64,000 bases of DNA, taken from the NCBI RefSeq assembly GCF_008271465.1, contig NZ_VMDU01000013.1:1-64000 (forward strand). The letters run 5' to 3'. The translations under genes and the position numbers were made by a program. This DNA comes from Tabrizicola flagellatus (lineage in GTDB: Bacteria; Pseudomonadota; Alphaproteobacteria; Rhodobacterales; Rhodobacteraceae). The notes under the pieces were generated by a model, which searched no databases, was not told the DNA's origin, and saw only the letters and a program-made list of their open reading frames with translations. Positions 30,910 through 32,612 of this stretch are shown piece by piece (the first letter of the stretch is position 1; each line of letters begins with the position of its first letter).

Positions 30910-32612
30910 ACCCCCAACGCCCGGAATACCTTCGGCAGTTCTTCCGGCAGGTCCTCGGCGATCAGCCCCGGCCCGAAGGACAGCGCGCACTCCACATGCA
31001 GCCAGGCCCCGGTGCAGGCGGCGTCGAAGGGCGAGACCCCCCGCGCCAGCAGCCCGGTGATGAACCCCGCAAGCACATCGCCCGACCCTGCGGTGGCCAG
31101 CCAGGGTGCTGCCCGTTCGTAGTGGGCGGAGTTGATGGCGCAGCGCCCCGAGGGGTCGGCGATCACCGTATCGGGCCCTTTGAAGAGGACCACGCAGCCC
31201 GCGCGCCCGGCGGCCGCCCGCGTGGCATCGACCTTGGAATAGGCGGGGCCCTTGGTGGCGGGGGCGGCGAGCTTTTCGGCGATGTCGGGGAAGAGGCGGG
31301 CGAACTCCCCGGCATGGGGGGTCAGGACGCATCCCTCGTGCAGGGCGGCGAAGAGGTCGGGGTGTTGGGACAGGATGGTGAGGGCATCGGCATCTAGGAC
31401 CAGATGGCGTCTTTCGGAGGACGGGGCCCCCCTCCCCTCTCCCCTCCCCACGAGGGGGAGGGGAAGCGCGTCACCGTCACCGTCTGTGCGGGACGCCTGA
31501 CCTTTGCCGCTCCCCTCCCCCTCGTGGGGAGGGGATGGGGGTGGGGGGCTCCCGGCCGGAATACCCAGCGCAACCGCCACCACCTCCCTGGCCCGCGCAT
31601 CGATCCCCAACCCCGGCCCTACGCACAGCGCATTGATCCGCTTGTCCTCCAGCGCCTCCTCCAGCATCAGCCCATCCGCGACCGCCCGCAGCATCACCGC
31701 ATCCAGCCGCGCGGCGTTCTCCGGTATGGCCTCGGGAGGACACCCCACCGTCACCAGTCCCGCCCCGATCCGCAGCGCCCCCCGCGCCGCCAGCCGCGCC
31801 GCCCCGCCCCGACCGGAGGGGCCGGAGAGGACGAGGGCGTGGCCGTAGGCATATTTGTGCCCGGTTGCCTTGCTAAGCCGCGCGGTCGCCGTCGGCCGCT
31901 CGATCAGCGTCACGCCTGCATCAGCGGCGAGGCCCAGGGGCACCACCCGCAACCGCTCGCAGGCCCGGGGGCCGACCCCAAGGTAGTGGCCGGGCTTCGG
32001 CGTCTGGAAGGTCACCGTCAGGTTCGCCACGACCCGGTCGTCCAGCGGATTGCCAGCAGCGCTGTCCGGATAGCGCCCGCTGTCGGCGCAAAGCCCGCTT
32101 GGAACATCCACTGCCACGACACGCGGGGTTTCCCCCGTGCGGCTGGCCGATCGCCACCAGTTCAGTTCGCCCTGAACCGCATCCAGATCCTCGAAGGGGC
32201 GCGTCAGACCGATGCCGAACAGGGCATCCACCACGAGAGCCGTGCCTTCGGCCCATGCGGGCAGCGAATCGTTCTGCAGCGGCCGCACCTCCCCCATCCC
32301 CCGCCACCGCTCGCAATTCACCCTTGCGTCCGGCGGCAGCCGCTCCGGGTCGCCGTAGAGGAAGACCTCCACCTCCCAGCCCCATTCCCTGAGCAGCCGC
32401 GCCACGACGAACCCGTCGCCGCCGTTGTTGCCCGGCCCGCAGAGGACCACCGCCCGGTGCGAGGTTGCCTTCAACTCCGGCCATTCCTCGAAGATCGCCT
32501 CGACCACGCCCTTTCCCGCACGTTCCATCAATTCGAGGCCCGTGACATCTCCACTGGCAATCACCGCCTGTTCGATGGCCCGCATTTGTGCAGCGGTCAG
32601 GAGTTCGGTCAT
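30906..32612 (-). CDS. nnr: Bifunctional NAD(P)HX epimerase/dehydratase with palindromic insert
   Basis: 568 residues. It repairs hydrated NADH/NADPH. The N-terminal YjeF epimerase domain (about 1-230) has [17 protein letters not shown] (58-74) and [13 protein letters not shown]. The C-terminal ADP-dependent dehydratase domain (about 245-568) has [46 protein letters not shown] sequence, [10 protein letters not shown] and the NAGSGD-type [19 protein letters not shown]. Residues about 354-400, between [10 protein letters not shown] and [10 protein letters not shown], are a Pro/Gly-rich insert absent from the usual family and encoded by an inverted-repeat element. The frame is intact across it, so the gene may still be functional. 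Confidence 0.92.
31413..31553 (-). repeat. Inverted-repeat element inserted in frame in nnr
   Basis: Two perfect 24-bp inverted arms (31440-31463 and 31512-31535) enclose a 48-bp centre. Weaker complementarity extends outward to about 31427 and 31548. Each arm also has internal pairing (CCCCTCCCC with GGGGAGGGG). The about 141-bp insert has a length divisible by three and adds about 47 residues including [13 protein letters not shown] and [13 protein letters not shown]. Composition differs sharply from the flanking gene. It resembles protein-embedded palindromic elements such as those of Rickettsia in principle, not in sequence. Confidence 0.8.

What the first reader, a model, noticed from the sequence alone, without database searches (positions are those of the whole stretch)
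31413..31553. Palindromic element inserted in frame inside the NAD(P)HX dehydratase domain
The insert carries two perfect 24-bp inverted arms (31440-31463, 31512-31535) around a 48-bp centre and encodes about 47 Pro/Gly-rich residues (about 354-400) without breaking the frame. It sits between two conserved motifs of the dehydratase domain, likely in a surface loop. Both arms read as proline/glycine-rich peptide in this frame. An element that can enter a coding gene and stay translatable is unusual outside Rickettsia-type palindromic elements, and this one has a different sequence.
Basis: partly seen in the sequence, partly recalled or inferred. Interest (0 to 1): 0.7.

Follow-up and report, generated by a model that had tools for sequence, protein, structure and literature searches.

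The report
Palindromic repeats colonise one enzyme loop
A short DNA palindrome that is scattered around this bacterium's genome sits in frame inside a housekeeping repair enzyme, and related species carry quite different palindromes in the same protein loop, so this loop appears to be a repeated landing place for parasitic-looking DNA that the cell then translates.

Summary
Window 31413-31553 lies inside an intact nnr gene (30906-32612, minus strand; epimerase plus NAD(P)HX dehydratase). Each perfect 24-bp "arm" is itself a hairpin: the insert is two inverted copies of a 44-bp REP-like unit, a REPIN-like doublet. The unit was found at 47 sites in this genome: 37 intergenic, 1 at a gene edge, 9 inside genes, among them CobN, HrpB, PhnI and a P-type ATPase.

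The larger finding is that the loop is reused. Of 71 distinct Rhodobacteraceae homologues, 39 hold an element here: this family (A) in 14, a CGTC-type family (B) in 10, a GTAG-type family (C) in 12, A plus B in 3. Close relatives differ. Of 110 loci, one open frame spans the loop in 107. Synonymous sites in the stems do not vary (0 of 11, against 126 of 212 elsewhere in the gene, six genes).

Best reading: mobile REP-like repeats insert, selection removes frame-breaking copies, and the disordered loop tolerates the rest. No RAYT transposase was found. This extends the Rickettsia RPE and intragenic-REP phenomenon, with unusual site reuse. The mobilising machinery and any function are unknown.

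The parts
30906..32612 (-). nnr, bifunctional NAD(P)HX epimerase / dehydratase, 568 aa, frame intact across the insert
   Evidence: the model matches YxkO (1kyh, 3rph) with TMt 0.77-0.78
31413..31553 (-). In-frame palindromic insert (residues about 354-400; whole variable loop about 349-402)
31506..31549 (-). Family A REP-like unit 1, first in coding order: 44 bp, C-rich tail, hairpin, then AGCGGC
   Evidence: read against the unit alignment
31426..31469 (+). Family A REP-like unit 2, opposite orientation
   Evidence: read
31470..31505 (.). Variable spacer between the two units
30889..30909 (-). A separate GTAG-tagged palindrome at the 3' end of nnr; its GTAG (30906-30909, minus) contains the TAG stop codon of nnr
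   Evidence: read from the sequence; ORF end

Best explanation
The insert is a doublet of a short, GC-rich, REP-like palindromic repeat (family A) that is dispersed mainly between genes. Copies enter new sites, probably as hairpin-forming single-stranded DNA handled by a transposase supplied in trans or by replication-associated template switching (inferred). Most insertions into genes are removed by selection (inferred from their depletion). A copy survives in a gene when it keeps the frame open and falls in a disordered loop. The NnrD loop between the helix after VGPGLG and the strand of VLDADALT is such a site, so members of three unrelated palindrome families have entered it, sometimes one beside another. 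Alleles have then been exchanged and lost during species divergence. The DNA of the stems is kept nearly unchanged at synonymous sites, by gene conversion among copies, by arm-templated correction, or by selection on the hairpin (which of these is not shown). The encoded Pro/Gly-rich loop is most likely neutral or nearly so for the enzyme (inferred).
For: Repetition: 87 BLAST matches in the genome, 105 pattern hits against 2 control hits. Mostly extragenic: 37 of 47 sites intergenic although 91% of the window is coding by the same gene finder (plus nnr). In-frame copies in conserved genes: CobN, HrpB, PhnI, PhnJ tail, AMP-binding enzyme, P-type ATPase, hydrolase fusion. Different frames in different genes argue against a dedicated peptide. 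Same loop, three families: A 14, B 10, C 12, A+B 3, none 32 of 71. Close pairs with flanking matches of about 82-95% nt identity differ: L013 C / L014 A, L018 C / L049 A, L010 C / L090 A. Parsimony needs 20 changes on a glnA tree of 61 rows. B and C are dispersed in relatives. One open frame spans the loop in 107 of 110 loci (88 by motif; 19 more). pLDDT block means 40-53 for residues 361-400. Stem synonymous sites: 0 of 11 variable against 126 of 212 in six genes (p 7.5e-5); 0 of 4 against 142 of 157 in twelve two-unit A carriers (p 1.4e-4); in five PhnI genes 1 of 11 against 103 of 165 (p 6.4e-4).
Against: No mobilising enzyme was found: Y1_Tnp is absent from the own genome, and of 28 genomes of the genus, own included, none reaches the cut-off and two have weak matches. 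No target-site duplication was shown. Translation of the insert is inferred only from the open frame and the conserved downstream domain. The frame is not always kept: L116 (G004) is broken at the loop in a run of G that looks like a damaged C-type palindrome, and a PhnI gene, L166 (G025), has a stop just after its family A unit; both may be assembly errors. Some turnover is recombination of alleles: L012/L016 are 94.7% alike before the loop and 84.0% after it. States partly follow the tree (20 changes against a shuffled mean of 27.7). The loop block 351-360 is modelled with pLDDT 82, so not all of the insert is predicted as disordered.
Confidence: 0.75

Rival explanations
1. The loop palindromes are selected: the hairpin in the nnr mRNA or DNA has a function (mRNA stability, translational pausing, protein binding), and different REP families replace each other because any strong hairpin will do.
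For: Very strong fold; stems conserved at synonymous sites in nnr and PhnI; conserved codons include rare ones (CCT 4% and CCA 3% of Pro, though CCC and GGG are common); the three families share palindromy but no obvious sequence.
Against: 32 of 71 homologues have no recognisable element; single-unit forms exist (L036, L047, L054); the same stem conservation would follow from gene conversion.
Confidence: 0.15
2. Loop turnover is mainly horizontal allele exchange (for example by gene transfer agents), with only a few original insertions.
For: Mosaic pairs: L012/L016 and L009/L011, which share the element and its right flank but differ left of it; Rhodobacterales are known for gene transfer agents (recalled, not tested).
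Against: Different families still need separate insertions; nested and tandem arrangements in both orders (L032 A then B; L099 and L113 B then A; L020 an extra B hairpin) show further events.
Confidence: 0.4
3. Assembly or binning artefact of repeats in metagenomes.
For: Many loci are MAGs, including the 11 named of the 12 C carriers; L116 looks damaged at a palindrome.
Against: Named isolates show it: Defluviimonas aestuarii and D. salinarum (A), Tabrizicola oligotrophica (A, one unit), T. thermarum, Rhodobacter calidifons and D. denitrificans (B); the loop is in one open frame in 107 of 110 loci.
Confidence: 0.03
4. The insert is self-removing or bypassed (intron-like, or ribosome hopping).
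For: A long perfect hairpin in a coding region; not excluded by sequence.
Against: The frame is kept through full, single-unit and degenerate forms, which bypass would not need; no Rfam family reaches its gathering score.
Confidence: 0.02

Closest known systems
Rickettsia palindromic elements (RPE)
   Same: Palindromic repeats translated in frame inside conserved proteins and tolerated. Delihas 2007 (PMC2229807, passages seen) cites 19 reading frames and one tested enzyme that stayed active with changed substrate affinity.
   Different: RPEs are 105-146 bp and end in CGTC according to PMC3733652; family A units are 44 bp without that tag. No direct comparison with RPE sequences was made. Reuse of one site by unrelated families was not mentioned in the RPE passages I saw.
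GTAG and CGTC REPs (Di Nocera et al. 2013, PMC3733652; section 15 and passages)
   Same: Short palindromes, mainly intergenic, sometimes intragenic, dimers common. Families B and C of the nnr loop carry CGTC and GTAG respectively. Different REPs at about the same site are reported there for Xanthomonas recB.
   Different: Family A has neither tag (read). Three families across many species in one loop goes beyond the recB case.
REPINs (Bertels and Rainey 2011, PMC3116915; abstract and passages; author names recalled)
   Same: Two inverted REPs with a less conserved spacer forming one long hairpin.
   Different: REPINs are linked there to RAYT transposases and extragenic space; no RAYT was found here, and doublets also lie inside genes.

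Membership tests
REP | Short imperfect palindrome in many copies, mostly extragenic | tested here: met
   47 sites, 37 intergenic (plus nnr); 44-bp unit
REP | GTAG (or CGTC) tag at one end | tested here: not met
   Family A consensus, read, has neither; families B and C do
REPIN | Inverted doublet with spacer forming a hairpin | tested here: met
   nnr insert; 13 of 47 sites are doublets (plus nnr)
REPIN | Associated RAYT tyrosine transposase | tested here: not met
   PF01797: 0 matches in own genome; 0 of 28 genomes of the genus, own included, over the cut-off, 2 weak matches
RPE | In-frame insertion into conserved protein genes | tested here: met
   nnr, CobN, HrpB, PhnI and others
RPE | Rickettsia RPE sequence with CGTC end | tested here: not met
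   No CGTC in the family A unit; RPE sequences themselves were not compared
MITE | Terminal inverted repeats with target-site duplication | tested here: inconclusive
   Empty and filled sites printed side by side are too diverged to show a duplication

The most novel reading that the evidence does not exclude
A single loop of a housekeeping enzyme works as a landing pad for several unrelated REP families, where an earlier palindrome helps the next one to enter, and the palindrome is held constant at the DNA level inside a translated gene by arm-templated correction or conversion among dispersed copies. If so, loop length and sequence of a core enzyme evolve by selfish repeats rather than by point mutation.
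Probability: 0.3. Interest if true: 0.75.

Novelty: new variant of a known kind. Interest (0 to 1): 0.6.

Why it matters
It gives a non-Rickettsia system, in culturable environmental bacteria, for asking how parasitic palindromes become protein. The same loop filled by three families, plus empty versions, is a natural set of insertion and deletion variants of one enzyme. The stem conservation seen in two genes makes it testable whether palindromes inside genes are maintained by DNA repair or conversion rather than by selection on the protein.

Tried and rejected
RAYT-driven mobility: no Y1_Tnp in the own genome. One distant genome (G048) has both a palindrome close to the family A pattern and a strong Y1_Tnp, but its copies are a different sequence with their own spacing, and the 3.3 kb around its Y1_Tnp hold no unit. 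Known structured RNA: 17 Rfam matches up to E 1 (best mir-188, E 2.7e-4), all below their gathering scores and mostly microRNA models hitting the hairpin. A dedicated encoded peptide: different genes use different frames. The whole-gene nnr tree as species history: used with caution because parts of the gene disagree; a glnA flank tree was added. An ornithine-decarboxylase flank tree held only 12 rows, 5 changes against a shuffled mean of 5.9: uninformative.

Rows dropped before counts. Of 110 nnr loci, 88 matched both flanking motifs in one open frame, so for these the open frame is a condition of entry; 71 remained after removing duplicates. Of the 22 not matched, 19 are also single open frames that my motif missed (one, L078, is a two-unit A; the others whose loops were printed are not A, B or C), 2 are cut short (L107, L114) and 1 is frame-broken (L116). 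The 32 'none' rows include loops that look like worn C repeats (L034, L035, L050). Of the 47 sites listed I dropped one 18-bp chance hit (L121) and added nnr. L131 counts as intragenic although its copy precedes a probable signal peptide, so its start codon may be wrong. Sites come, whose lists were capped or scored in part, so 47 is a lower bound. The six nnr genes of the first stem test were picked by me from 17 A or A+B carriers; the later test used 12 two-unit carriers and agrees. PhnI used 5 of the 6 two-unit genes. In one search the family A pattern matched 26 of 37 genomes, but its control was higher than the pattern in G022 (19 against 8) and high in G004 (19 against 39).

Full report
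What is there. The reported insert lies in an intact 568-aa gene on the minus strand, 30906-32612. Pfam finds the epimerase domain YjeF_N and the NAD(P)H-hydrate dehydratase domain, the latter in two stretches. The best match among solved structures is TM0922, aligned at query 10-345 and 403-566; between the two stretches the target has about ten residues. The 24-bp arms and 48-bp centre are as reported, and the folded strand is far more stable than shuffles (z -9.2). Each arm is a hairpin of its own, so the object is a pair of inverted repeat units.

A dispersed repeat. The 141-bp insert has 87 BLAST matches in its own 3.6-Mb genome. A degenerate core pattern gives 52 forward and 53 reverse hits, against 0 and 2 for the reversed control. 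Fifty-nine matched units (one of them the chance hit in L121) from the 40 fetched stretches show a 44-bp unit, about GCCCCCCACCCCCATCCCCTCCCCACGnGGGGGAGGGGAGGCGC, with a close subtype; in doublets the GGCGC ends face inward (read by eye). A codon-usage gene finder trained on long ORFs of the window and these stretches% of the window coding. Yet of 47 sites (46 kept plus nnr) 37 are intergenic, 1 overlaps a gene edge and 9 are intragenic. Intragenic copies are therefore strongly depleted. Besides nnr they lie in CobN, a polyketide-cyclase/hydrolase fusion, HrpB, PhnI, the PhnJ tail, an AMP-binding enzyme, a P-type ATPase and a short protein without a Pfam match, none with an internal stop. The peptide frame differs between genes.

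The loop is a shared landing site. I fetched 110 nnr loci (80, 30); 88 gave both flanking motifs in one open frame, 71 after removing duplicates. By peptide motif rules, with the DNA of 42 loops inspected, 14 hold family A, 10 family B (CCCGTCCCGGGnnTGACCCGGGAC), 12 family C (GTAGGTCGGGGTTCACCCCGAC doublets and a GTAGGCCGGGCTTCAGACCGGC variant), 3 hold A and B together and 32 none. Families B and C are themselves dispersed in relatives: B gives 35 strand hits in G001 and 27 in G021 but 3 in the own genome, with no control hits in any of 37 genomes. C is enriched more modestly, 26 against 5 control hits in G007 but only 8 against 6 in the own genome, so counts do not support it as a repeat in the window's own genome.

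Frame. One open frame spans the loop in 107 of 110 loci: the 88 above, for which it was a condition of entry, and 19 that my motif missed. Two loci are cut short. One, L116 (G004), is broken at the loop inside a long run of G between remnants of a C-type repeat, possibly an assembly error.

Turnover. Close pairs carry different families at the same place: L013 (C) and L014 (A), L018 (C) and L049 (A), L010 (C), L021 (C variant) and L090 (A), with matching flanks at about 82-95% nucleotide identity. On a glnA DNA tree of 61 rows the five states need 20 changes; 200 label shuffles gave a mean of 27.7 and a minimum of 23, so there is some inheritance and much turnover. On the nnr tree without the loop the count is 23. 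Some turnover is recombination: L012 and L016 agree 94.7% before the loop and 84.0% after it. Nested and tandem forms occur in both orders.

A second gene. PhnI repeats the pattern. In 25 printed rows, 23 genomes, I count by eye 6 loops with two family A units and about 5 with one. L166 (G025), not among these rows, has a unit followed by a stop codon.

DNA-level conservation. Among six nnr genes with family A doublets, four-fold sites vary at 0 of 11 stem codons and 126 of 212 codons elsewhere (Fisher p 7.5e-5). With only the four whose spacers look homologous it is 0 of 11 against 114 of 235 (p 0.001). With twelve two-unit A carriers it is 0 of 4 against 142 of 157 (p 1.4e-4), with ten of them 0 of 8 against 148 of 178 (p 1.6e-6), and with L026, L029, L046 and L044 plus the window 1 of 7 against 148 of 195 (p 0.0015). 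In five PhnI genes it is 1 of 11 against 103 of 165 (p 6.4e-4). Preserved codons include CCT and CCA, 4% and 3% of proline codons in the window, though others such as CCC (43%) and GGG (26% of glycine) are common. Homologous spacers make recent separate insertion unlikely in the four-gene set; in PhnI the spacers differ and separate insertion remains possible. Stem sites are few.

Structure. The AlphaFold model from a 50-sequence alignment (mean pLDDT 80) places the insert between helix 339-348 and strand 403-406; block means are 82 for residues 351-360 and 40-53 for 361-400. It matches B. subtilis YxkO with TMt 0.77-0.78; the two-domain match to TM0922 is poor overall (TMt 0.44-0.46), probably from domain orientation.

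Mechanism. Shown: repeat nature, in-frame residence, depletion in genes, site reuse and stem conservation. Inferred: mobility, tolerance by disorder and near neutrality. Not found: a mobilising enzyme. Y1_Tnp is absent from the own genome, and of 28 genomes of the genus, own included, only two have weak matches below the cut-off. Di Nocera et al. [quoted passage not shown]

Comparison with print. The listings shown by searches held no title or abstract start on nnr or Tabrizicola loops with palindromes; several were capped, and one search returned one paper, on centromere-like sites. The library lacks most subscription papers, and the one RPE paper I tried was not held. The intragenic-REP list of Di Nocera et al. 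is in a supplement that could not be opened, so some of these genes could be in it.

Stop codon. At the 3' end of nnr a GTAG-tagged palindrome (30889-30909) contains the TAG stop codon, an arrangement that Di Nocera et al. describe as frequent. The gene is thus touched by two kinds of palindrome.

Noticed in passing
window 30889-30909: A GTAG-tagged palindrome abuts nnr and contains its TAG stop codon.
   Followed up: partly
L019 and L020, nnr residues about 105-255: Tabrizicola thermarum and Rhodobacter calidifons match at about 96-97% in both flanks and closely at both ends of NnrE/D, but the second half of the epimerase domain and the linker are highly divergent (49% nucleotide identity in two 60-codon blocks); the linker also varies strongly across relatives.
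   Followed up: partly
L135 (own genome C3:310340-310419), PhnI: PhnI carries a family A doublet in frame, and relatives show doublets, single units or none in the same loop.
   Followed up: partly
L012 and L016: nnr is mosaic: identical or nearly so over much of the part before the loop, clearly diverged after it, with different C-type elements between.
   Followed up: no
L045, nnr loop: Four tandem copies of a B half-repeat encode PGSGPGRA repeats, suggesting slippage within the inserted repeat.
   Followed up: no
L037, nnr loop: Defluviimonas sediminis has an extra segment of about 25 residues without a notable inverted repeat at this site; origin unknown.
   Followed up: no
G048 (loci L193-L196): A genome of another family of the class holds its own dispersed palindrome close to the family A core (CTCCCCCTGGCGGGGGAG), several times paired at about 100 bp, and a strong Y1_Tnp elsewhere.
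   Followed up: partly
L116 (G004) 1441-1600: The nnr frame is broken at the loop inside long runs of G, which may be an assembly error at a palindrome.
   Followed up: partly
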